From Streptococcus sp. 29887 (lineage in GTDB: Bacteria; Bacillota; Bacilli; Lactobacillales; Streptococcaceae): 64,000 nucleotides of DNA. How positions within the stretch are numbered: the stretch's first letter is position 1; every line of letters begins with the position of its first letter. The stretch is from positions 896,001 through 960,000 of the forward strand of contig NZ_CP118735.1 in the NCBI RefSeq assembly GCF_032595075.1, written 5' to 3'. The translations under genes were made by a program, and so were the position numbers. The notes below the pieces were generated by a model that saw only the letters and a list, made by a program, of their open reading frames with translations, did not search any database and had not been told where the DNA came from. Positions 1,483-13,257 of this stretch are shown one piece after another.

Positions 1483-2013
1483 TTAAATACGCACAATGGA
1501 CAAGATATAACGCTGAATAGTTTCAGGTGATTCTTGACAACCATGTTGTATCCAATACTTGATGATACTGTCGATGGTTGAAACATAAACAGTTAAGGCA
1601 TACTCGTAAGGAATTTTATATGCCTGTTCAAGTTGTTTTGGAAGATTAGGAATACTGGAATTTTCAATAACTTCGGTAATATACTTGGTAACTTCTAAAG
1701 AAACATGAGGGAAAAAATGAACAAAGTCCACGGCTATTTCCTTATTTTTATAGAGAAACTGCAACATTTCTCCTACGACATTGTCATTTAGGGAGGGATC
1801 TTTTGCTAGAATAATACTGATTTCGTTCAGGATATATTCAAGGGATTCTTCTAGGAAGGTTTCCTTAGAGTTGTAGTAGTGATAGAAGACCCGACGGCTT
1901 AGTTTAGCACGGTCTGCAATTTGATTGATCGTAAAACTGTTATTGTCATCAGATTTTTTGAGTTCGAAAAAGGCTTTCAGAAATTTTTGGCTGGTTGTAA
2001 AATACTTTTCCAT
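1483..2013 (-). CDS. TetR/AcrR-family transcriptional regulator
   Basis: 176 residues, close to the usual size. The N-terminal ~50 residues carry the TetR helix-turn-helix, with the typical run FTINQIADRAKLSRRVFYHYY at about residues 28-48. The C-terminal part would be the ligand and dimer domain and has no recognisable signature. The gene is divergent from the giant collagen-like gene, and an inverted repeat lies between them, so auto-regulation and control of the adhesin are likely (inference). Oddly, the Shine-Dalgarno GGAG (complement of 2032-2035) is 18 bases from the ATG because an alternating AT tract fills the gap. This spacing is far too long for efficient initiation unless the tract length changes. 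Confidence 0.85.
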   Translation of the reverse strand: MEKYFTTSQKFLKAFFELKKSDDNNSFTINQIADRAKLSRRVFYHYYNSKETFLEESLEYILNEISIILAKDPSLNDNVVGEMLQFLYKNKEIAVDFVHFFPHVSLEVTKYITEVIENSSIPNLPKQLEQAYKIPYEYALTVYVSTIDSIIKYWIQHGCQESPETIQRYILSIVRI

Positions 2014-2030
2014 ATATATATATATATATA
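2012..2030. repeat. Alternating AT dinucleotide tract at the tetR start codon
   Basis: Nineteen bases of uninterrupted alternating A/T (9.5 units). It overlaps the tetR initiation codon (2011-2013) and separates it from the only Shine-Dalgarno-like sequence. Slippage would change that spacing in 2-base steps without touching the coding frame. Confidence 0.85.
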
Positions 2031-2066
2031 ACTCCGTAAAAATTTATTTAATAAAATTTATAAAAA

Positions 2067-2097
2067 AATAAATGCACTGCACAAAAATGTATTTATT
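2067..2097. promoter_or_regulatory. Candidate TetR operator (inverted repeat)
   Basis: AATAAATGCA (2067-2076) and TGTATTTATT (2088-2097) form an inverted repeat matching at 9 of 10 positions with an 11-base spacer. It is in the divergent intergenic region and reaches the -35 region of the adhesin promoter. Confidence 0.5.
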
Positions 2098-2123
2098 GTG
2101 AAACATTCATTTTATAGACATTA

Positions 2124-2129
2124 TATAAT
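2124..2129 (+). promoter_or_regulatory. -10 box of the collagen-like adhesin gene
   Basis: TATAAT, 62 bases before the chosen ATG at 2191. No good -35 is present at 16-18 bases, which fits a regulated promoter. Confidence 0.5.
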
Positions 2130-2190
2130 GTATTGTGTAATCATGCAACTATTTCTTTATAAAGTTGTTGGAATATGGAAAGGAATTCTT

Positions 2191-5100
2191 ATGTTTTTTG
2201 ATAATAAACAGCTTGAAAACGAAGCATTGCGCTCGAAGCAACGGTTTACCATTAAAAAGTTTAAATCGGGTGCAGCCTCAGTTTTAATCGGTTTCTTATT
2301 TATGTTCAGCGGTGGAGCCTTAAAAGCTGCTGCAGAAGAGCTTGAATCAGGTCAGTTGCCACAGACGACCGAGCTGGTGGACAAACCACTGGATTCAAGT
2401 GCTCAGGCAAACGAAGTAGTTTCTCATTCGGTACAGCAAGAAGCAGGAGAGGTTGTACAAACAGTAGAGCCAACTTCTGCCGTGCTTGCAACACCCCCAA
2501 GTTCCACTCAGCTAGTAGACGAACAGCCTAAAGAAACAGAGGAAACGATTGCTACTAAGTCAGCAACTGTTCCTAGTTCCGCTCAGGAAGTAGCAGAGCC
2601 TAAATCCCAGGAAATTGTGGAGGAGATTACTCCTGAACCAGCAGTATTGTCAACTTCATCGACAGAAGCAAAACCTGAGCAGAAGCAAGGAGTTGCAACA
2701 CAGCAAGCGACTGAAGAAAGTGTAACGAAGCTTGAACCTGTTTCTAATAATGTCCAAGCAGATGCTAGCAAGGAGAATGTAGCGAATGCAACAAGAGCCG
2801 CAGAAACTCAAATAGATGGACAAGCTTTGCCAACTCGTGATTTAAGTCAGTTAGATTTGGCCAATATGAGCTTTGCAGACTTGGAAACTTTAGGGCTTTC
2901 TGAAGAAGAGAAACTCACTCTGTTCAATCAAATTCTTGCTCAACAAACAGGATCGAATTCTGTTCAACTAACAGAGGAAGAAATAAGAAGTTTAGCTGGT
3001 TTCAGTGAAGCTGAGAAAAATTTCTATATTCAAAATAAATTAGGCAATACCAACCTTCCGCAACCACTCAATTTGGTAGTTATGTCAGAAACACTGATTA
3101 CGCCTAATAATCAGAACAAGTATGTGGTTAATGCAAAAGGGCAGACCTTTGCCTATGGTCCTGCAAACTACACCTTGACTGTGACGCCGAACCGAGCCAG
3201 AAATACCGTGGATTTCGAACTGAATTATAAATTAGACGGTATCAATGGTCGTTCGGGTACTCACGTGGCTGATTTTGTTGTCAATCTCGGAAGCGCTTAC
3301 GGTACACCTGGTGTTGCAACAGTGCGTGCTGGGAACAATACTACGACCACCGCTCTCGTTAATGGTGGGCGTCGAAATACCATTACTGGTTACAGTCCGA
3401 CATCGCCTATCCAATACACAAACGCCCAAGTGATGAATGGACCACTCAATGTGAAGTTCACAGTACCTGTTAGAAACTGGAATGGGGATTTGAGTATTGA
3501 TAACCACATTGGTATGTTCTCCGTTGACACTGGGGCTAACAACACGAAAGATTTCTTCTCTTCAGACAACTACTTCTGGAATAAGAGTGTCGTAACCATT
3601 GATCCTAATCCAAGTAGAAATGAAATCACAACGACCTTGCCTCCTATTGCGATGCCGATTCCATTTCAAACAGAATACCGCTTCGTTGTTATGCCTGACC
3701 AGGCTCCTGGTTTCACCAGACAAATTGAAGCCGGTGCAAATGGGGTGATGCAGATTCCTGTTAAACGGATTGCTTACATTGGTGCAAATGGTACAGAGGA
3801 ATCTCATCGTTATGAGTATGGTCAAGCGACTGTACATACACCGGCACGCAATCAAATCATTGAGGTTAATATCAAAGATGGCATAGAGGCACCAGTTGCA
3901 GCACCGAATATTGATGTGACTACAGTTCGAAAACAAGGTTCTGTAGATGGAGGGCCATTGGTCAATGGTACGGAATTGACCTTTAGAGATGGTCCGAACG
4001 GTAGAATTATCCGACAGGTCTTTATCCCAGATGGTTTACAAGGGGAACGAGGTCAAGATGGTCGAAATGCAGATATTACTGTTGAACCTGCACGAGCTGC
4101 GGATGGCACACCAGGATACAATATCACAGTTACTGGCGCTGATGGTAGCAGATATACTCGATTTGTTCGTGATGGAAAAGACGGTCGCGATGGTCGAAAT
4201 GCAGATATTAGTGTAACTCCTGCTGTTGCAACAGATGGAACAAAAGGTCACAATGTTACCGTTACTAGACCGAATGGTAGCAGTTTTACTACCTTTATCC
4301 GAGATGGAAAAGACGGTACCAATGGTCGTGACGGTCGTGATGGTATAGATGGTAAAACTCCGAGTGTAGATTTACAACCTTATACAGGTCAAGATGGCCG
4401 CATTCTTGGTACAACGGTTATTGTAAAAGATGGTGATGGTCAAATCATTTCCCGTAGAAATATCTTAAATGGTAGCGATGGTCAGGACGGCAAAACGCCA
4501 TCTATTGAACAATTACCAGTGATGGATGGTGGTAGAGTCATCGGCACCCTCATTATTGTTCGTGATGGTGATGGTCGTGAAATCAATCGCCAGACTATTT
4601 ACAACGGTCGCGACGGTGCCAAAGGTCAAGATGGTGCCAATGGTAGCTCCGTCATTTCCGAACGTCAAAATGACGGTACTGTTAAAGTTTACAATGTGTC
4701 TTCTACAGGTCAGCGTACTGAAGTCGCCACCATTCGCAACGGTGTCGACGGTACCAACGGTCGTGATGGTGCTAATGGTAGCTCCGTTGTTTCAGAACTT
4801 CAACCAGACGGTAGTGTAAAAGTTTACAATGTGTCTTCTACAGGTCAGCGCACTGAAATCGCCACCATTCGCAACGGTGTCGACGGTACCAACGGTCGTG
4901 ATGGAGCTAAAGGTCAAGATGGTACCAATGGTAGCTCCGTTGTTTCAGAACTTCAACCAGACGGTAGTGTAAAAGTCTACAATGTGTCTTCTACAGGTGA
5001 CCGCACTGAAATCGCCACCATCCGCAACGGTGTCGATGGTACCAACGGTCAGAATGGTGCCAATGGTAGCTCAGTTGTTTCAGAACTTCAACCAGACGGT

Positions 5101-8100
5101 AGTGTAAAAGTCTACAATGTGTCTTCTACAGGCGACCGTACTGAAATTGCCACCATTCGAAACGGTGTCGATGGTCGTGACGGCGCCAAAGGTCAAGATG
5201 GTACCAATGGTAGCTCCGTTGTTTCAGAACTTCAACCAGACGGTAGTGTAAAAGTTTACAATGTGTCTTCTACAGGTCAGCGCACTGAAATCGCCACCAT
5301 CCGCAACGGTGTCGATGGTCGTGACGGTGCCAAAGGTCAAGATGGTACCAACGGTCGTGATGGTGCCAATGGTAGCTCCGTCGTTTCTGAGCTTCAACCA
5401 GATGGCAGTGTAAAAGTTTACAATGTGTCTTCTACAGGCGACCGTACTGAAATTGCCACCATTCGCAACGGTGTCGATGGTGCCAATGGTAGCTCAGTTG
5501 TTTCAGAACTTCAACCAGACGGTAGTGTAAAAGTTTATAATGTGTCTTCTACAGGTCAGCGTACAGAAATCGCTACAATTCGCAACGGTATCGATGGTAC
5601 CAACGGTCGTGATGGTGCCAATGGAAGTTCAGTTGTTTCAGAACTTCAACCAGATGGTAGTGTAAAAGTCTACAATGTGTCTTCTACAGGCGACCGTACA
5701 GAAATCGCCACCATCCGCAACGGTGTCGATGGTCGTGACGGTGCCAAAGGTCAGGATGGTACCAACGGTCGTGATGGTGCCAATGGCAGCTCAGTTGTTT
5801 CAGAACTTCAACCAGACGGTACTGTAAAAGTCTACAATGTGTCTTCTACAGGCGACCGTACAGAAATCGCCACCATTCGCAACGGTGTCGATGGTGCCAA
5901 TGGAAGCTCCGTCGTTTCCGAACGTCAAAATGACGGTAGTGTAAAAGTTTACAATGTGTCTTCTACAGGTCAGCGTACAGAAATCGCCACCATCCGCAAC
6001 GGTGTCGATGGTCGTGACGGTGCCAAAGGTCAAGATGGTACCAATGGTAGCTCTGTTGTTTCACAACTTCAACCAGACGGTAGTGTAAAAGTCTACAATG
6101 TGTCATCTACAGGCGACCGTACAGAAATCGCCACCATCCGTAATGGTGTTGATGGTACCAACGGTCGTGATGGTGCCAATGGAAGTTCTGTTGTTTCAGA
6201 ACTTCAACCAGACGGTAGTGTAAAAGTTTACAATGTGTCTTCTACAGGCGACCGTACAGAAATCGCCACCATCCGTAATGGTGTAGATGGTCGCGACGGT
6301 ACCAAAGGTCAAGATGGCACAAATGGAAGTTCTGTTGTTTCACAACTTCAACCAGACGGTAGTGTAAAAGTCTACAATGTGTCTTCTACAGGTCAGCGCA
6401 CTGAAATCGCCACCATCCGCAACGGTGTCGATGGTCGTGACGGTGCCAAAGGTCAAGATGGTACCAACGGTCAAGATGGTACCAACGGTCGTGATGGTGC
6501 CAATGGTAGCTCCGTCGTTTCTGAGCTTCAACCAGATGGCAGTGTAAAAGTTTACAATGTGTCTTCTACAGGCGACCGTACTGAAATTGCCACCATTCGA
6601 AACGGTGTCGATGGTCGTGACGGTGCCAAAGGTCAAGATGGTACCAATGGTAGCTCCGTTGTTTCAGAACTTCAACCAGACGGTAGTGTAAAAGTTTATA
6701 ATGTTTCATCCACAGGTCAACGCACCGAAATCGCCACCATCCGCAACGGTGTCGATGGTCGTGACGGTGCCAAAGGTCAGGATGGTACCAACGGTCGTGA
6801 TGGTACCAATGGTAGCTCCGTTATTTCAGAACTTCAACCAGACGGTAGTGTAAAAGTTTATAATGTGTCTTCTACAGGTCAGCGTACAGAAATCGCTACA
6901 ATTCGCAGCGGTATCGATGGTACCAACGGTCGTGATGGTGCCAATGGAAGTTCAGTTGTTTCAGAACTTCAACCAGACGGTAGTGTAAAAGTTTACAATG
7001 TGTCTTCTACAGGTCAACGCACCGAAATCGCCACCATCCGCAATGGTGTAGATGGAACAAACGGTCGTGATGGTGCTAAAGGTCAAGATGGTACCAATGG
7101 AAGTTCAGTTGTTTCAGAACTTCAACCAGACGGTAGTGTAAAAGTCTACAATGTGTCTTCTACAGGCGACCGTACTGAAATTGCCACCATCCGCAACGGT
7201 GTCGATGGTCGTGACGGTGTCAAAGGTCAAGATGGTACCAATGGTAGCTCAGTTGTTTCACAACTTCAACCAGACGGTAGTGTAAAAGTTTACAATGTCT
7301 CATCTACAGGTGACCGCACTGAAATCGCCAGCATTCGCAACGGTGTTGACGGTACCAACGGTCGTGATGGTGCCAATGGTAGCTCCGTTGTTTCAGAACG
7401 TCAAAATGACGGTAGTGTAAAAGTTTACAATGTGTCTTCTACAGGCGACCGTACTGAAATTGCCACCATTCGAAACGGTGTCGATGGTCGTGACGGTGCC
7501 AAAGGTCAAGATGGTACCAATGGTAGCTCCGTTGTTTCAGAACTTCAACCAGACGGTAGTGTAAAAGTTTATAATGTTTCATCCACAGGTCAACGCACCG
7601 AAATCGCCACCATCCGCAACGGTGTCGATGGTCGTGACGGTGCCAAAGGTCAGGATGGTACCAACGGTCGTGATGGTGCCAATGGTAGCTCCGTTATTTC
7701 AGAACTTCAACCAGACGGTAGTGTAAAAGTTTATAATGTGTCTTCTACAGGTCAGCGTACAGAAATCGCTACAATTCGCAGCGGTATCGATGGTACCAAC
7801 GGTCGTGATGGTGCCAATGGAAGTTCAGTTGTTTCAGAACTTCAACCAGACGGTAGTGTAAAAGTTTACAATGTGTCTTCTACAGGTCAACGCACCGAAA
7901 TCGCCACCATCCGCAATGGTGTAGATGGAACAAACGGTCGTGATGGTGCTAAAGGTCAAGATGGTACCAACGGAAGTTCAGTTGTTTCAGAACTTCAACC
8001 AGACGGTAGTGTAAAAGTCTACAATGTGTCTTCTACAGGCGACCGTACTGAAATTGCCACCATCCGCAACGGTGTCGACGGTACCAACGGTCGTGATGGT

Positions 8101-11100
8101 ACCAATGGTAGCTCAGTTGTTTCAGAACTTCAACCAGACGGTAGTGTAAAAGTTTACAATGTGTCTTCTACAGGTCAGCGCACTGAAATCGCCACCATCC
8201 GCAACGGTGTCGATGGTCGTGACGGTGCCAAAGGTCAAGATGGTACCAACGGTCAAGATGGTACCAACGGTCGTGATGGTGCCAATGGTAGCTCCGTCGT
8301 TTCTGAGCTTCAACCAGATGGCAGTGTAAAAGTTTACAATGTGTCTTCTACAGGCGACCGTACTGAAATTGCCACCATTCGAAACGGTGTCGATGGTCGT
8401 GACGGTGCCAAAGGTCAAGATGGTACCAATGGTAGCTCCGTTGTTTCAGAACTTCAACCAGACGGTAGTGTAAAAGTTTATAATGTTTCATCCACAGGTC
8501 AACGCACCGAAATCGCCACCATCCGCAACGGTGTCGATGGTCGTGACGGTGCCAAAGGTCAGGATGGTACCAACGGTCGTGATGGTACCAATGGTAGCTC
8601 CGTTATTTCAGAACTTCAACCAGACGGTAGTGTAAAAGTTTATAATGTGTCTTCTACAGGTCAGCGTACAGAAATCGCTACAATTCGCAGCGGTATCGAT
8701 GGTACCAACGGTCGTGATGGTGCCAATGGAAGTTCAGTTGTTTCAGAACTTCAACCAGACGGTAGTGTAAAAGTTTACAATGTGTCTTCTACAGGTCAAC
8801 GCACCGAAATCGCCACCATCCGCAATGGTGTAGATGGAACAAACGGTCGTGATGGTGCTAAAGGTCAAGATGGTACCAATGGAAGTTCAGTTGTTTCAGA
8901 ACTTCAACCAGACGGTAGTGTAAAAGTCTACAATGTGTCTTCTACAGGCGACCGTACTGAAATTGCCACCATCCGCAACGGTGTCGATGGTCGTGACGGT
9001 GTCAAAGGTCAAGATGGTACCAATGGTAGCTCAGTTGTTTCACAACTTCAACCAGACGGTAGTGTAAAAGTTTACAATGTCTCATCTACAGGTGACCGCA
9101 CTGAAATCGCCAGCATTCGCAACGGTGTTGACGGTACCAACGGTCGTGATGGTGCCAATGGAAGTTCAGTTGTTTCAGAACTTCAACCAGACGGTAGTGT
9201 AAAAGTCTACAATGTTTCATCCACAGGTCAGCGCACTGAAATCGCCAGCATCCGCAACGGTGTCGACGGTACCAATGGTAGCTCAGTTGTTTCAGAACCT
9301 CAAAAAGATGGTAGTGTAAAAGTCTACAATGTGTCTTCTACAGGCGACCGTACTGAAATCGCCAGCATCCGCAACGGTGTCGATGGTGCCAAAGGTCAAG
9401 ATGGTACCAATGGTAGCTCAGTTGTTTCAGAACTTCAACCAGACGGTAGTGTAAAAGTTTACAATGTGTCCTCTACAGGTCAGCGCACTGAAATCGCCAG
9501 CATCCGCAACGGTGTCGATGGTGCCAACGGCAGCTCAGTTGTTTCAGAGCTTCAACCAGATGGCAGTGTAAAAGTCTACAATGTGTCTTCTACAGGTCAG
9601 CGTACAGAAATCGCCACCATTCGCAACGGTGTCGACGGTACCAACGGTCGTGATGGTGCCAATGGTAGCTCCGTCGTTTCAGAGCTTCAACCAGATGGCA
9701 GTGTAAAAGTTTACAATGTGTCTTCTACAGGTCAGCGTACAGAAATCGCCACCATTCATAATGGTGTAGATGGTCGCGATGGTAAGAATTCAGAAGTCAT
9801 AGTGACCCCAGGCACAGACCAAAATGGTAATACCGGTCAAACGATTACTATTGTCAAACCAGACGGTAGTCGCGAAACCACCTTTATCCGTGATGGTAAA
9901 GATGGTAGAGACGGTGTTGACGGTAAGGATGGCAAGTCTCCACTTGTAGAACAAATCGAAGTTCGTGAGGGAGACAAGGTTATCGGTACTACCATTATCA
10001 TCAAAGATGGTGATGGTCAGGAAATCAGCCGTCAAACCATTCTCAACGGCCGCGATGGTAAGAACTCAGAAGTCACAGTGACCCCAGGCACAGACCAAGA
10101 TGGTAATACCGGTCAAACGATTACTATTGTCAAACCAGACGGTAGTCGCGAAACCACCTTTATCCGTGATGGTAAAGATGGTAGAGACGGTGTTGACGGT
10201 AAGGATGGCAAGTCACCACTAGTAGAACAAGTCGAAGTTCGCGAAGGTGACAAGGTTATCGGCACTACTATTATCATCAAAGATGGCGATGGTAATGAAA
10301 TCAGTCGTCAAACCATCCTCAATGGTCAAGATGGTAAGAATGGTGCTGATGGTAAGAGTGCCGAAGTCACTGTTACTCCAGGCACAGACCAAAACGGTAA
10401 CCCAGGTCAAACGATTACTATTGTCAAACCAGATGGCAGTCGTGAAACTACCTTTGTCCGTGATGGTAAGAACGGTGTAGATGGTCGCGACGGAAAAGAT
10501 GGCAAGTCACCACTAGTAGAACAAGTCGAAGTTCGCGAAGGTGACAAGGTTATCGGCACTACTATTATCATCAAAGATGGCGATGGTAACGAAGTCAGCC
10601 GTCAAACTATCCTCAACGGTGTAGACGGTAAGAATGGTGCCGATGGTAAGAGTGCTGAAGTCACAGTAACCCCAGGCACAGACCAAAATGGTAACCCAGG
10701 TCAAACGATTACTATTGTCAAACCAGATGGCACTCAAGAAACCACCTTTATCCGTGATGGTAAAGATGGTGCCAAAGGTCAAGACGGCAAGTCACCACTA
10801 GTAGAACAAGTCGAAGTTCGCGAAGGTGACAAGGTTATCGGTACAACCATTATCATCAAAGATGGCGATGGTAACGAAGTCAGCCGTCAAACTATCCTCA
10901 ACGGTGTAGACGGTAAGAATGGTGCCGATGGTAAGAGTGCTGAAGTCACAGTAACCCCAGGCACAGACCAAAACGGTAACCCAGGTCAAACGATTACTAT
11001 TGTCAAACCAGATGGCACACGAGAAACTACCTTCATCCGCGACGGAAAAGATGGCGCTAAAGGTCAAGACGGTAAGAACGGTGCAGATGGTCGCGACGGA

Positions 11101-13257
11101 AAAGATGGCAAGTCACCACTTGTAGAACAAATCGAAGTTCGTGAAGGCGACAAAGTTATCGGTACTACCATTATCATCAAAGATGGTGATGGTCAGGAAA
11201 TCAGCCGTCAAACCATTCTCAACGGCCGCGATGGTAAGAATTCAGAAGTCACAGTGACCCCAGGCACTGACCAAGATGGTAATACCGGTCAAACGATTAC
11301 TATCGTTAAGCCAGATGGCAGTCATGAAACTACCTTTATCCGTGATGGTAAAGACGGTAGAGACGGTGTTGACGGTAAGGATGGCAAGTCTCCACTAGTA
11401 GAGCAAATCGAAGTTCGTGAAGGCGACAAAGTTATCGGTACTACCATTATCATCAAAGATGGTGATGGTCAGGAAATCAGCCGTCAAACCATTCTCAACG
11501 GTCGCGATGGTAAGAATTCAGAAGTCACAGTAACCCCAGGCACAGACCAAAACGGTAACCCAGGTCAAACGATTACTATCGTCAAACCAGACGGTAGTCG
11601 CGAAACCACCTTTATCCGTGATGGTAAAGATGGTAGAGACGGTGTTGACGGTAAGGATGGCAAGTCTCCACTAGTAGAACAAGTCGAAGTTCGCGAAGGT
11701 GACAAGGTTATCGGCACTACTATTATCATCAAAGATGGCGATGGTAATGAAATCAGTCGTCAAACCATCCTCAATGGTCAAGATGGTAAGAATGGTGCCG
11801 ATGGTAAGAGTGCTGAAGTCACAGTAACCCCAGGCACAGACCAAAATGGTAACCCAGGTCAAACGATTACTATCGTCAAACCAGATGGCACACGAGAAGC
11901 TACCTTCATCCGCGACGGTAAAGATGGAGCCAAAGGTCAAGATGGTAAGAATGGTGTAGATGGTAAAGACGGTCGCGATGGCAAGTCCCCACTAGTAGAA
12001 CAAGTCGAAGTTCGTGAGGGTGACAAGGTTATCGGTACAACCATTATCATCAAAGATGGCGATGGTAACGAAGTCAGCCGTCAAACTATCCTCAACGGTG
12101 TAGACGGTAAGAATGGTGCCGATGGTAAGAGTGCTGAAGTCACAGTAACCCCAGGCACAGACCAAAATGGTAACCCAGGTCAAACGATTACTATTGTCAA
12201 ACCAGACGGCACTCAAGAAACCACCTTTATCCGTGATGGTAAAGATGGTAGAGACGGTGTTGACGGTAAGGATGGCAAGTCTCCACTTGTAGAACAAATC
12301 GAAGTTCGTGAGGGAGACAAGGTTATCGGTACTACCATTATCATCAAAGATGGTGATGGTCAGGAAATCAGCCGTCAAACCATTCTCAACGGCCGCGACG
12401 GTAAGAATTCAGAAGTCACAGTAACCCCAGGCACAGACCAAAATGGTAACCCAGGTCAAACGATTACTATTGTCAAACCAGACGGCACACGAGAAACCAC
12501 CTTTATCCGTGATGGTAAAGACGGTAGAGACGGTAGAGATGGTAGAGACGGTAAAGACGGTAGAGACGGTGTAGATGGTCAAGATTGTGGTTGTGATCCA
12601 AATCTCCCAACCCCACCAGTAGTCCCAACTCCACCGGTAGTTCCAACTGTGCCAGCAGTTCCAACTCCACCAGCAGTTCCAACTCCACCGGTAGTCCCAA
12701 CTCCACCGGTAGTTCCAACTGTGCCAGCAGTTCCAACTCCACCGGTAGTTCCAACCCCACCAGTAGTCCCAACTCCACCGGTAGTTCCAACTGTGCCAGC
12801 AGTTCCAACTCCACCGGTAGTCCCAACTCCACCGGTAGTCCCAACTCCACCGGTAGTTCCAACTGTGCCAGCAGTTCCAACTCCACCAGTAGTCCCAACT
12901 CCACCGGTAGTTCCAACTGCGCCAGTAGTTCCAGCTCAACCGGCAGTTCCAACTGCGCCAGTAGTTCCAGCTCAACCGGCAGTTCCAACTGCGCCAGTAG
13001 TTCCAGCTCAACCGGCAGCTCCAACCCCACCAGTAGTTCCAATTCCTCCAGTTGCTTTGACTCCACCTACCCCACTGGTTACTCCAAGTGTTCCAGTTCA
13101 ATCAGAACCACTTAAAGTTGTGGTAACTCCAGGGACACAAGTAGCGGTATTGCCAAATACAGGTGAAACAGACTCAACATTCATATTGATTATGAGTGGA
13201 GGTGCTATTGTTGCTAGCTTATCTTTGGCTGGAACTTTAATAAGAAGAAATAACTAG
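2191..13257 (+). CDS. Giant collagen-like LPXTG-anchored surface protein
   Basis: About 3,688 residues from ATG 2191, chosen because GGAAAGGA precedes it and because the following FTIKKFKSGAASVLIGFLF is a YSIRK-like export signal. The frame is open back to GTG 2098, but that start would put 31 residues before the signal. Order: signal; low-complexity Pro/Glu/Ala/Thr stalk; a non-repetitive domain (about residues 300-590) that may be the ligand-binding head; then a very long Gly-X-Y-rich region; a pair of cysteines (QDCGCD); a Pro-rich wall-spanning segment; and an LPNTG sorting signal with a hydrophobic tail and RRNN. Sortase A would anchor it. It is probably an adhesin, but the ligand cannot be told. 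Gly-Asp-Gly triplets replace proline-rich collagen triplets. Confidence 0.93.
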   Translation: MFFDNKQLENEALRSKQRFTIKKFKSGAASVLIGFLFMFSGGALKAAAEELESGQLPQTTELVDKPLDSSAQANEVVSHSVQQEAGEVVQTVEPTSAVLATPPSSTQLVDEQPKETEETIATKSATVPSSAQEVAEPKSQEIVEEITPEPAVLSTSSTEAKPEQKQGVATQQATEESVTKLEPVSNNVQADASKENVANATRAAETQIDGQALPTRDLSQLDLANMSFADLETLGLSEEEKLTLFNQILAQQTGSNSVQLTEEEIRSLAGFSEAEKNFYIQNKLGNTNLPQPLNLVVMSETLITPNNQNKYVVNAKGQTFAYGPANYTLTVTPNRARNTVDFELNYKLDGINGRSGTHVADFVVNLGSAYGTPGVATVRAGNNTTTTALVNGGRRNTITGYSPTSPIQYTNAQVMNGPLNVKFTVPVRNWNGDLSIDNHIGMFSVDTGANNTKDFFSSDNYFWNKSVVTIDPNPSRNEITTTLPPIAMPIPFQTEYRFVVMPDQAPGFTRQIEAGANGVMQIPVKRIAYIGANGTEESHRYEYGQATVHTPARNQIIEVNIKDGIEAPVAAPNIDVTTVRKQGSVDGGPLVNGTELTFRDGPNGRIIRQVFIPDGLQGERGQDGRNADITVEPARAADGTPGYNITVTGADGSRYTRFVRDGKDGRDGRNADISVTPAVATDGTKGHNVTVTRPNGSSFTTFIRDGKDGTNGRDGRDGIDGKTPSVDLQPYTGQDGRILGTTVIVKDGDGQIISRRNILNGSDGQDGKTPSIEQLPVMDGGRVIGTLIIVRDGDGREINRQTIYNGRDGAKGQDGANGSSVISERQNDGTVKVYNVSSTGQRTEVATIRNGVDGTNGRDGANGSSVVSELQPDGSVKVYNVSSTGQRTEIATIRNGVDGTNGRDGAKGQDGTNGSSVVSELQPDGSVKVYNVSSTGDRTEIATIRNGVDGTNGQNGANGSSVVSELQPDGSVKVYNVSSTGDRTEIATIRNGVDGRDGAKGQDGTNGSSVVSELQPDGSVKVYNVSSTGQRTEIATIRNGVDGRDGAKGQDGTNGRDGANGSSVVSELQPDGSVKVYNVSSTGDRTEIATIRNGVDGANGSSVVSELQPDGSVKVYNVSSTGQRTEIATIRNGIDGTNGRDGANGSSVVSELQPDGSVKVYNVSSTGDRTEIATIRNGVDGRDGAKGQDGTNGRDGANGSSVVSELQPDGTVKVYNVSSTGDRTEIATIRNGVDGANGSSVVSERQNDGSVKVYNVSSTGQRTEIATIRNGVDGRDGAKGQDGTNGSSVVSQLQPDGSVKVYNVSSTGDRTEIATIRNGVDGTNGRDGANGSSVVSELQPDGSVKVYNVSSTGDRTEIATIRNGVDGRDGTKGQDGTNGSSVVSQLQPDGSVKVYNVSSTGQRTEIATIRNGVDGRDGAKGQDGTNGQDGTNGRDGANGSSVVSELQPDGSVKVYNVSSTGDRTEIATIRNGVDGRDGAKGQDGTNGSSVVSELQPDGSVKVYNVSSTGQRTEIATIRNGVDGRDGAKGQDGTNGRDGTNGSSVISELQPDGSVKVYNVSSTGQRTEIATIRSGIDGTNGRDGANGSSVVSELQPDGSVKVYNVSSTGQRTEIATIRNGVDGTNGRDGAKGQDGTNGSSVVSELQPDGSVKVYNVSSTGDRTEIATIRNGVDGRDGVKGQDGTNGSSVVSQLQPDGSVKVYNVSSTGDRTEIASIRNGVDGTNGRDGANGSSVVSERQNDGSVKVYNVSSTGDRTEIATIRNGVDGRDGAKGQDGTNGSSVVSELQPDGSVKVYNVSSTGQRTEIATIRNGVDGRDGAKGQDGTNGRDGANGSSVISELQPDGSVKVYNVSSTGQRTEIATIRSGIDGTNGRDGANGSSVVSELQPDGSVKVYNVSSTGQRTEIATIRNGVDGTNGRDGAKGQDGTNGSSVVSELQPDGSVKVYNVSSTGDRTEIATIRNGVDGTNGRDGTNGSSVVSELQPDGSVKVYNVSSTGQRTEIATIRNGVDGRDGAKGQDGTNGQDGTNGRDGANGSSVVSELQPDGSVKVYNVSSTGDRTEIATIRNGVDGRDGAKGQDGTNGSSVVSELQPDGSVKVYNVSSTGQRTEIATIRNGVDGRDGAKGQDGTNGRDGTNGSSVISELQPDGSVKVYNVSSTGQRTEIATIRSGIDGTNGRDGANGSSVVSELQPDGSVKVYNVSSTGQRTEIATIRNGVDGTNGRDGAKGQDGTNGSSVVSELQPDGSVKVYNVSSTGDRTEIATIRNGVDGRDGVKGQDGTNGSSVVSQLQPDGSVKVYNVSSTGDRTEIASIRNGVDGTNGRDGANGSSVVSELQPDGSVKVYNVSSTGQRTEIASIRNGVDGTNGSSVVSEPQKDGSVKVYNVSSTGDRTEIASIRNGVDGAKGQDGTNGSSVVSELQPDGSVKVYNVSSTGQRTEIASIRNGVDGANGSSVVSELQPDGSVKVYNVSSTGQRTEIATIRNGVDGTNGRDGANGSSVVSELQPDGSVKVYNVSSTGQRTEIATIHNGVDGRDGKNSEVIVTPGTDQNGNTGQTITIVKPDGSRETTFIRDGKDGRDGVDGKDGKSPLVEQIEVREGDKVIGTTIIIKDGDGQEISRQTILNGRDGKNSEVTVTPGTDQDGNTGQTITIVKPDGSRETTFIRDGKDGRDGVDGKDGKSPLVEQVEVREGDKVIGTTIIIKDGDGNEISRQTILNGQDGKNGADGKSAEVTVTPGTDQNGNPGQTITIVKPDGSRETTFVRDGKNGVDGRDGKDGKSPLVEQVEVREGDKVIGTTIIIKDGDGNEVSRQTILNGVDGKNGADGKSAEVTVTPGTDQNGNPGQTITIVKPDGTQETTFIRDGKDGAKGQDGKSPLVEQVEVREGDKVIGTTIIIKDGDGNEVSRQTILNGVDGKNGADGKSAEVTVTPGTDQNGNPGQTITIVKPDGTRETTFIRDGKDGAKGQDGKNGADGRDGKDGKSPLVEQIEVREGDKVIGTTIIIKDGDGQEISRQTILNGRDGKNSEVTVTPGTDQDGNTGQTITIVKPDGSHETTFIRDGKDGRDGVDGKDGKSPLVEQIEVREGDKVIGTTIIIKDGDGQEISRQTILNGRDGKNSEVTVTPGTDQNGNPGQTITIVKPDGSRETTFIRDGKDGRDGVDGKDGKSPLVEQVEVREGDKVIGTTIIIKDGDGNEISRQTILNGQDGKNGADGKSAEVTVTPGTDQNGNPGQTITIVKPDGTREATFIRDGKDGAKGQDGKNGVDGKDGRDGKSPLVEQVEVREGDKVIGTTIIIKDGDGNEVSRQTILNGVDGKNGADGKSAEVTVTPGTDQNGNPGQTITIVKPDGTQETTFIRDGKDGRDGVDGKDGKSPLVEQIEVREGDKVIGTTIIIKDGDGQEISRQTILNGRDGKNSEVTVTPGTDQNGNPGQTITIVKPDGTRETTFIRDGKDGRDGRDGRDGKDGRDGVDGQDCGCDPNLPTPPVVPTPPVVPTVPAVPTPPAVPTPPVVPTPPVVPTVPAVPTPPVVPTPPVVPTPPVVPTVPAVPTPPVVPTPPVVPTPPVVPTVPAVPTPPVVPTPPVVPTAPVVPAQPAVPTAPVVPAQPAVPTAPVVPAQPAAPTPPVVPIPPVALTPPTPLVTPSVPVQSEPLKVVVTPGTQVAVLPNTGETDSTFILIMSGGAIVASLSLAGTLIRRNN
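4630..9780 (+). repeat. Tandem A-type repeats of the surface protein (36 copies)
   Basis: Each unit reads NGSSVVSELQPDGSVKVYNV, then SSTGQRTEIATIRNGVDG, plus a variable collagen-like spacer of Gly-X-Y triplets (TNGRDGAKGQDG and variants). I count 36 copies of KVYNVSSTG. Copies alternate mainly between TGQR and TGDR. Spacer length varies between 0 and about 8 triplets. A higher-order block is present: copies 13-19 and 25-31 are nearly identical at a constant DNA offset of 1,782 bp, and copies 20-23 give a partial third copy at an offset of 873 bp. Confidence 0.9.
9781..12590 (+). repeat. B- and C-type repeats of the surface protein
   Basis: Two alternating modules separated by Gly-X-Y spacers. 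B contains SPLVEQVEVREGDKVIGTTI and the TILNG end (9 copies). C contains SEVTVTPGTDQNGNPGQTIT, then IVKPDG and TFIRDGKDG (10 copies). Diverged versions of both occur before the A block (about 4050-4620), so the A block seems to have expanded inside an older B/C array. Confidence 0.85.
12600..13085 (+). repeat. Proline/valine-rich wall-spanning repeats
   Basis: PTPPVVPTVPAV-type decapeptide and pentapeptide repeats, then PAQPAVPTAPVV units. The codons are highly uniform, so the DNA repeats closely as well. This is the usual cell-wall-spanning segment before an LPXTG signal. Confidence 0.85.

What the first reader, a model, noticed from the sequence alone, without database searches (positions are those of the whole stretch)
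2012..2030. Alternating AT tract sets the Shine-Dalgarno to start-codon distance of the TetR gene beside a giant adhesin
A 19-bp uninterrupted AT tract begins inside the tetR start codon and fills the space to its only GGAG, giving a spacing of 18 bases. Loss or gain of 2-bp units would retune translation of the presumed repressor in steps and so switch the neighbouring 11-kb adhesin gene. Phase variation by spacing change in a regulator, not in the adhesin, would be an economical switch.
Basis: partly seen in the sequence, partly recalled or inferred. Interest (0 to 1): 0.7.

Follow-up and report, generated by a model that had tools for sequence, protein, structure and literature searches.

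The report
Length-variable repeat before regulator's start codon
[quoted passage not shown] its length differs between related genomes in two-base steps, so it could act as a heritable dial on that regulator, though no change in expression has been measured.

Summary
A 19-bp AT tract (2012-2030) fills the 18 bases between GGAG and the ATG of a TetR-family gene, divergent from a 3,688-aa YSIRK/collagen-like surface protein; shuffled windows give 0 matches. Of 284 Streptococcus genomes, eight (own included) encode a close TetR. Six carry the tract: 19, 17, 17, 11, 19, 17 bp. Two have none and a 7-base spacer. Two pairs differ by one TA unit within otherwise identical flanks. TetR is conserved (dN/dS at or below 0.14 in 13 of 15 pairs). 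An inverted repeat TTYACA-N13-TGTRAA, at most one mismatch, lies upstream of 17 of 30 related TetR genes (shuffled mean 0.33), suggesting TetR control of the divergent gene; sign unknown. Best reading: a slippage-driven rheostat on TetR translation, passed on to the adhesin. Not shown: switching within a culture, any expression effect, direction. Folding predictions are mixed. In passing: AT-tract promoter-like spacers occur in 37 of 284 genomes and vary in 2-bp steps at shared promoters, so AT tracts may be unstable in these genomes generally.

The parts
2012..2030 (-). AT dinucleotide tract (9.5 units) that fills the Shine-Dalgarno to start-codon spacer and supplies the first two bases of the ATG
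   Evidence: length 11, 17 or 19 bp among six genomes
2032..2035 (-). GGAG, the only Shine-Dalgarno-like element seen by eye close upstream of tetR; 18 bases from the ATG
   Evidence: present in 6 of 6 tract-bearing genomes
1483..2013 (-). TetR-family regulator, 176 aa (TetR_N + TetR_C_8)
   Evidence: pairwise dN/dS 0.07-0.39 in the 15 pairs of tract-bearing genes
2078..2102 (.). operator-like inverted repeat, TTCACA-N13-TGTGCA read on the - strand, between the divergent genes
   Evidence: same spacing and half-sites with at most 1 mismatch in 17 of 30 TetR loci; single-base shuffles mean 0.33, maximum 2
2124..2129 (+). TATAAT, possible -10 of the adhesin promoter, 21 bases after the inverted repeat; no good -35 (by eye; not among the sites of the scan)
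   Evidence: present in 8 of 8 aligned loci when read on the + strand (alignment)
2180..2184 (+). AAGGA, Shine-Dalgarno of the adhesin, 6 bases from its ATG
   Evidence: sequence; the same in 8 of 8 aligned loci
2191..13257 (+). giant surface protein, 3,688 aa: YSIRK signal, collagen-like GXX tracts, collagen-flanked surface repeats, LPNTGE anchor
   Evidence: LPNTGE read in the translation

Best explanation
The (TA)n tract is a contingency element placed not in the adhesin gene or its promoter but in the translation-initiation spacer of the adjacent TetR-family regulator. Replication slippage adds or removes TA units. Because the last AT of the tract is part of the ATG, the start codon survives every change; what changes is the SD-to-AUG distance (10, 16 or 18 observed) and the folding of the (UA)n leader. 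TetR synthesis should therefore be stepped up or down heritably, predicted highest in the 10-base allele. TetR acts through the inverted repeat between the divergent genes, so the level of the giant adhesin would follow. Shown: tract, whole-unit length differences with identical near flanks, conserved TetR, conserved gene pair, conserved inverted repeat. Inferred: slippage as the cause, effect on TetR translation, binding of TetR to the repeat, effect on the adhesin and its sign, selective advantage.
For: Tract lengths 19/17/17/11/19/17 bp in G000/G261/G258/G257/G259/G057. G258 and G259 are identical for 279 bases upstream and 466 bases downstream yet differ by one unit; G000 and G261 are identical for 296 and 96 bases yet differ by one unit. 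Tract-less relatives G264 and G265 have 7 bases between GGGGG and GTG. dN/dS of 0.07-0.39 among the six tract-bearing tetR genes, 13 of 15 pairs at or below 0.14. The same adhesin start lies opposite in 8 of 8 close loci; 18 of 30 TetR loci have a YSIRK-type motif in the divergent ORF. TTYACA-N13-TGTRAA with at most one mismatch in 17 of 30, other spacings 0-4. [quoted passage not shown] the paper is not held).
Against: No reads, no isolates of one clone, no expression data. Only six alleles, each from a separate species-level genome, and five of the six are 17-19 bp. Recombination is evident (G000 and G261 share the near flanks but have 41 differences in 528 coding bases), so alleles could have been imported rather than slipped. 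Folding does not give a clean length series: the AUG is unpaired with probability 0.09-0.28 (19 bp), 0.03-0.32 (17 bp) and 0.29-0.39 (11 bp), and in the tract-less relatives the AUG-equivalent is free (0.96-0.99) but the SD is mostly paired (unpaired 0.05-0.13). A hairpin could also loop out the spacer and keep the effective distance short. No tetR promoter was found (no - strand site; 3 sites in all against 2.9 in shuffles), so it is not shown that the tract lies in the mRNA leader. 12 of 30 TetR homologues have no YSIRK-type neighbour.
Confidence: 0.5

Rival explanations
1. The tract is a tolerated, neutral microsatellite. It is unstable, but TetR translation is insensitive to its length, because the (UA)n leader folds and brings GGAG next to the AUG, or because little TetR suffices.
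For: TetR intact and conserved at all observed lengths. A (UA)n hairpin is in the printed minimum-energy fold of 4 of the 5 long alleles (G000, G261, G259, G057; not G258). Three other long AT tracts exist in the genome and related loci vary too, so AT tracts seem to arise and change here generally.
Against: Alternating AT runs above 6 bp are otherwise absent from the window. Where the hairpin is predicted it pairs the AUG itself, which should hinder rather than help. Six genomes with divergent tetR genes keep a tract exactly between GGAG and ATG.
Confidence: 0.27
2. The tract acts at the DNA level rather than on translation: as part of a promoter for tetR or for a transcript towards the adhesin, as AT tracts appear to do elsewhere in this genome.
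For: Two other AT tracts of the genome lie between TTGAC(A/G) and TATAAT. TTTACG lies just 5' of the tract on the tetR strand.
Against: No TATAAT follows the tract; it runs into ATGG. GGAG and ATG are present at its two ends in 6 of 6. A transcript from such a promoter would begin near or after the start codon. The scan found no - strand promoter-like site.
Confidence: 0.13
3. The length differences were spread or fixed by recombination between lineages and are now static alleles; no switching happens in a population.
For: Mosaic divergence around the tract; the sampled genomes are separate species-level representatives.
Against: Two pairs with identical near flanks differ by exactly one unit; G257 and G258 differ by three units with the nearest other differences 104 bases upstream and 47 bases into the gene.
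Confidence: 0.1

Closest known systems
Synthetic ribosome-binding-site repeats (Egbert and Klavins 2012)
   Same: SD-start spacer length used to tune a repressor circuit (review passage and reference entry in PMC3749727); that AT repeats were among those tested is recalled
   Different: Engineered in E. coli; here a natural tract before a regulator beside a surface-protein gene. The original paper was not seen (not held)
H. influenzae F3031 T12 tract 3 bp upstream of a YadA-domain gene (table row in PMC2651432, passages seen)
   Same: A natural repeat close enough to a start codon to lie in the ribosome-binding region
   Different: Homopolymer, in front of the surface-protein gene itself rather than a regulator; its effect is not stated in the passages seen
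hifA/hifB (TA)9-11 tract of H. influenzae (PMC2651432, passages seen)
   Same: TA dinucleotide tract between divergent genes whose length changes expression of a surface structure
   Different: The hif tract is proposed to space -35 and -10; this one spaces SD and AUG. The tracts at L006 and L007 are the closer match to hif
NadA/NadR phase variation in N. meningitidis (PMC2791445, abstract seen)
   Same: Repeat-length variation together with a repressor sets the level of an adhesin
   Different: There the repeats lie in the adhesin promoter and change operator spacing; here they lie before the regulator's start codon. NadR is recalled as MarR-like, not TetR
Phase-variable methyltransferases (ModS and others) of S. 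suis (PMC6265453, PMC8125046; search listing and start of abstracts seen)
   Same: A phase-variable regulator, rather than a surface gene, in S. suis
   Different: DNA methyltransferases; this is a TetR regulator with a spacer change

Membership tests
Simple-sequence-repeat contingency (phase-variable) locus | Uninterrupted short tandem repeat beyond chance in a position able to affect expression | tested here: met
Simple-sequence-repeat contingency (phase-variable) locus | Length differs in whole units among related genomes, flanks conserved | tested here: met
   (six genomes, three lengths)
Simple-sequence-repeat contingency (phase-variable) locus | Reversible, high-frequency change within a clone | not testable with these tools
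   no read sets or clone series held
Simple-sequence-repeat contingency (phase-variable) locus | Length change alters expression of the gene | not testable with these tools
   only folding predictions, with mixed outcome
TetR family of transcriptional regulators | TetR_N helix-turn-helix and a TetR C-terminal domain above curated cut-offs | tested here: met
   TetR_N 30.1 bits (cut-off 24), TetR_C_8 31.4 bits (cut-off 26.1); solved relative 3kkc, E 6.6e-7
TetR family of transcriptional regulators | Repressor rather than activator | not testable with these tools
   weak matches, all below NCBIfam cut-offs, to a repressor (BetI) and an activator (DhaS) model; DhaS chain 2iu5 at E 0.0026
YSIRK/LPXTG collagen-like surface protein | YSIRK signal, collagen-like and collagen-flanked repeats, LPXTG anchor | tested here: met
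   LPNTGE read. The SclB equivalog cut-off is not met (149.5 of 325 bits)
Promoter-spacer repeat of the hif type | Tract lies between -35 and -10 hexamers | tested here: not met
   no TATAAT after the tract; met instead by pattern at L006 and L007

The most novel reading that the evidence does not exclude
A natural ribosome-binding-site repeat: an AT tract recruited as a hypermutable, start-codon-safe rheostat on the translation of a TetR regulator, which makes the amount of a giant collagen-like adhesin vary heritably in steps; and AT dinucleotide tracts form a wider contingency system in streptococci (SD spacer, promoter spacers, upstream regions) that our literature searches did not find described.
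Probability: 0.42. Interest if true: 0.75.

Novelty: new variant of a known kind. Interest (0 to 1): 0.6.

Why it matters
Repeat-driven phase variation is best known from repeats that break a reading frame or respace a promoter (recalled). Here a repeat would tune translation of a regulator, so that one small unstable element controls an 11-kb gene without putting that gene at risk. Together with the variable AT-tract promoter spacers of the same genome it suggests that streptococci use AT dinucleotide tracts as expression dials. That can be tested in existing read sets and matters for interpreting surface antigens of a pig and human pathogen.

Tried and rejected
Found nothing: the plasmid and phage collections (near mode) and an exact pattern in viral contigs hold no further copy, so no isolate series could be had. 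A genus-wide pattern GGAG-(TA)n-ATGR hit 5 of 284 genomes, all at this locus, against 3 matches of the reversed control pattern; G257's 11-bp tract is too short for that pattern. The promoter scan was uninformative (3 found, 2.9 expected).

Rejected: that the other long AT tracts of the genome are also SD spacers. Two lie between promoter-like hexamers. The third, L005 5244-5265, lies about 130 bp upstream of a second YSIRK-type gene; in the 7 of 11 related loci whose ORFs were listed I saw no divergent regulator beside it.

Dropped rows: 12 of 28 dN/dS pairs (one member G264 or G265) were misaligned (dN near 2, dS above 2 or undefined) and are not used; the pair G264/G265 itself (0.08) is not tract-bearing. 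In one search, the fold of L013 took a wrong region; one search replaces the folds. One search mixed two query proteins; one search replaces it for tetR. Two of the 32 TetR matches were not given loci and not examined; among the 30 examined, one (L036) has an internal stop and one (L039) is partial.

The half-site of the inverted repeat was chosen after looking at the sequences, and the 30 loci are related, so the shuffle comparison overstates the strength of evidence. The 17 loci include two (L025, L040) without a YSIRK-type neighbour.

Literature: the nine searches in the held open-access library listed no paper whose title or abstract start describes a natural repeat between SD and start codon in a streptococcus, or AT-tract promoters in streptococci. 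Most listed papers were not opened and subscription papers are missing. In a 2025 phase-variation review the words ribosome, Shine-Dalgarno and dinucleotide do not occur (PMC11868660, word search). One paper says that dinucleotides are not likely to be phase-variable in Neisseria (PMC5320596, passage).

Full report
Observation. The + strand at 2012-2030 is a 19-bp alternating AT run. On the - strand the order is GGAG (2035-2032), T, the tract, and G; the final AT plus G is the ATG of a 176-aa ORF (1483-2013). The spacer is 18 bases. I saw no other SD-like element close upstream. The run is far beyond chance: 0 matches in 100 dinucleotide-preserving shuffles with up to 2 mismatches allowed; the longest run in each of 300 Markov windows was 6-11 bp, and the next longest run listed for the window is 6 bp.

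The genes. The ORF is a TetR-family regulator (TetR_N and TetR_C_8 above cut-off; closest solved chain 3kkc, E 6.6e-7). The divergent ORF from 2191 encodes 3,688 aa with a YSIRK signal, collagen-like and collagen-flanked repeats, and an LPNTGE anchor. The window belongs to a 2.3-Mb genome in two contigs. Four of the close relatives carry the record name Streptococcus suis; by equal contig coordinates they are G258, G259, G257 and G057. The window is therefore taken to be of the S. suis group (inference).

Variation of the tract. TetR was sought in 284 Streptococcus genomes; 29, the own genome included, have a match at E 1e-20 or better. Of 32 listed matches 30 were given as loci and examined. 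Eight are close (78-100% identity). Six of the eight carry the tract: 19 (G000, the window), 17 (G261), 17 (G258), 11 (G257), 19 (G259) and 17 bp (G057), that is spacers of 18, 16, 16, 10, 18 and 16 bases. G264 and G265 have none: there GTG follows GGGGG after 7 bases. All differences are whole TA units. G258 and G259 show no other difference for 279 bases upstream and 466 bases downstream; G000 and G261 none for 296 and 96 bases. G257 and G258 differ by three units, with the nearest other differences 104 bases upstream and 47 bases into the gene. Slippage explains this most simply. Against it, the region is mosaic (G000 and G261 have 41 differences in the 528-base gene), so recombination also acts here; five of six alleles are 17-19 bp; and each allele comes from a different species-level genome.

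Is TetR kept? Among the six tract-bearing genes, 15 pairs give dN/dS of 0.07-0.39, 13 of them at or below 0.14, and all six frames are intact. Twelve further pairs, with G264 or G265, were misaligned in that call and are not used. The start lies at the same place in the tract-less relatives, which argues against a mis-called start.

Does TetR act on the adhesin? In 8 of 8 close loci the same adhesin start lies opposite, 169-177 bases away. A YSIRK-type motif was found in the divergent ORF of 18 of 30 TetR loci; 12 of 30 have other neighbours. An inverted repeat TTYACA-N13-TGTRAA was found exactly in 9 of 30 upstream regions and with at most one mismatch in 17 of 30; for other spacings from 4 to 20 the counts are 0-4, and single-base shuffles give a mean of 0.33, maximum 2, at spacing 13. 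The half-site was picked after inspection and the loci are related, so this is strong but not independent evidence; 15 of the 17 have the YSIRK-type neighbour. In the window the repeat is TTCACA-N13-TGTGCA at 2078-2102, 21 bases before a TATAAT (2124-2129) on the adhesin strand, with no good -35. TetR could repress, or could activate the adhesin promoter: weak matches below cut-off go both to a repressor (BetI) and to an activator (DhaS). The sign is open.

What length should do. Folding predictions (six fold windows for each of eight leaders) are mixed. The AUG is unpaired with probability 0.09-0.28 in the 19-bp alleles, 0.03-0.32 in the 17-bp alleles and 0.29-0.39 in the 11-bp allele. In the tract-less leaders the start is free (0.96-0.99) but the SD is mostly paired (unpaired 0.05-0.13). 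A (UA)n hairpin is in the printed fold of 4 of the 5 long alleles and not in that of G258. Such a hairpin could hide the AUG or loop out the spacer. The fold energy of the window's leader is not exceptional against dinucleotide shuffles (z -0.83), which keep the AT steps.

Specificity of the architecture. The genus-wide pattern GGAG-(TA)n-ATGR hit 5 of 284 genomes, all at this locus; the reversed control hit 3. At the sensitivity of that pattern, the SD-spacer tract is confined to this locus.

Wider context, in passing. The own genome has three other AT tracts of 14 bp or more. Two lie between promoter-like hexamers (TTGACG to TATAAT, 23 bases, L006; TTGACA to TATAAT, 19 bases, L007). Such patterns occur in 37 of 284 genomes; I saw one match to the reversed control pattern. 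Before the L006 gene and its relatives the spacer is 23, 15, 21, 21 and 13 in G000, G256, G258, G263 and G264; at L007-like promoters it is 19, 19, 17, 19, 17, 17, 25 and 15 in G000, G050, G246, G251, G261, G250, G262 and G249, though the gene behind is not always the same (19 loci examined). The third tract lies upstream of a second YSIRK-type gene and is 22, 10, 12, 24, 21 and 22 bp in 6 of 11 loci examined; the other 5 have no alternating AT run of 10 bp or more. AT tracts are thus probably unstable in these genomes in general. That supports instability here but also weakens the claim that this one is special.

Comparison with the known. In working it resembles synthetic SD-spacer tuning (passages in a review), the hif TA tract of H. 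influenzae and NadA/NadR (abstract). By position it is none of these: it is neither a promoter spacer nor in the adhesin promoter. The nearest natural neighbour by position that I came across is a T12 tract 3 bp upstream of a YadA-domain gene in H. influenzae F3031 (table row). As a contingency locus this one meets the two features that can be tested here (tract, whole-unit length variation); the two decisive ones (switching in a clone, effect on expression) could not be tested.

Verdict. Observation confirmed; interpretation partly supported and strengthened by comparative data. My judgement: about 0.9 for a truly unstable tract, 0.7 for an effect on TetR translation, 0.75 for TetR control of the adhesin, and 0.5 for the whole chain (the steps are not independent).

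Noticed in passing
L006 9335-9359 and L007 8764-8782 (same genome); L098-L114: AT tracts between -35-like and -10-like hexamers before a gene with a hydrophobic N-terminus and a lipoprotein-like gene (no Pfam match for either); spacers from 13 to 25 at shared promoters; 37 of 284 Streptococcus genomes hold such patterns.
   Followed up: partly
L005 5244-5265: AT tract about 130 bp upstream of a second YSIRK-type surface gene; 10-24 bp in 6 of 11 related loci, flanked by CA/GT repeats in one.
   Followed up: partly
L062, L103, L107: AT-tract promoter-like patterns in other streptococcal genomes lie before a YSIRK-type gene (L062) and before genes with signal-peptide-like starts (L103, L107, by eye).
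   Followed up: no
window 2078-2102 and 16 further TetR loci: Shared TTYACA-N13-TGTRAA inverted repeat upstream of TetR genes in several Streptococcus genomes, 15 of 17 beside a divergent YSIRK-type ORF.
   Followed up: partly
L007, L098-L100, L102, L104-L106: A similar AT-tract promoter, in 7 of 8 followed by a leader that reads LEDYM or LEVYM, stands before different lipoprotein- or membrane-like genes, as if genes were exchanged behind a fixed leader.
   Followed up: no
window 2225-2243, - strand: One terminator-like site (0.1 expected in shuffles) upstream of tetR, inside the start of the adhesin gene.
   Followed up: no
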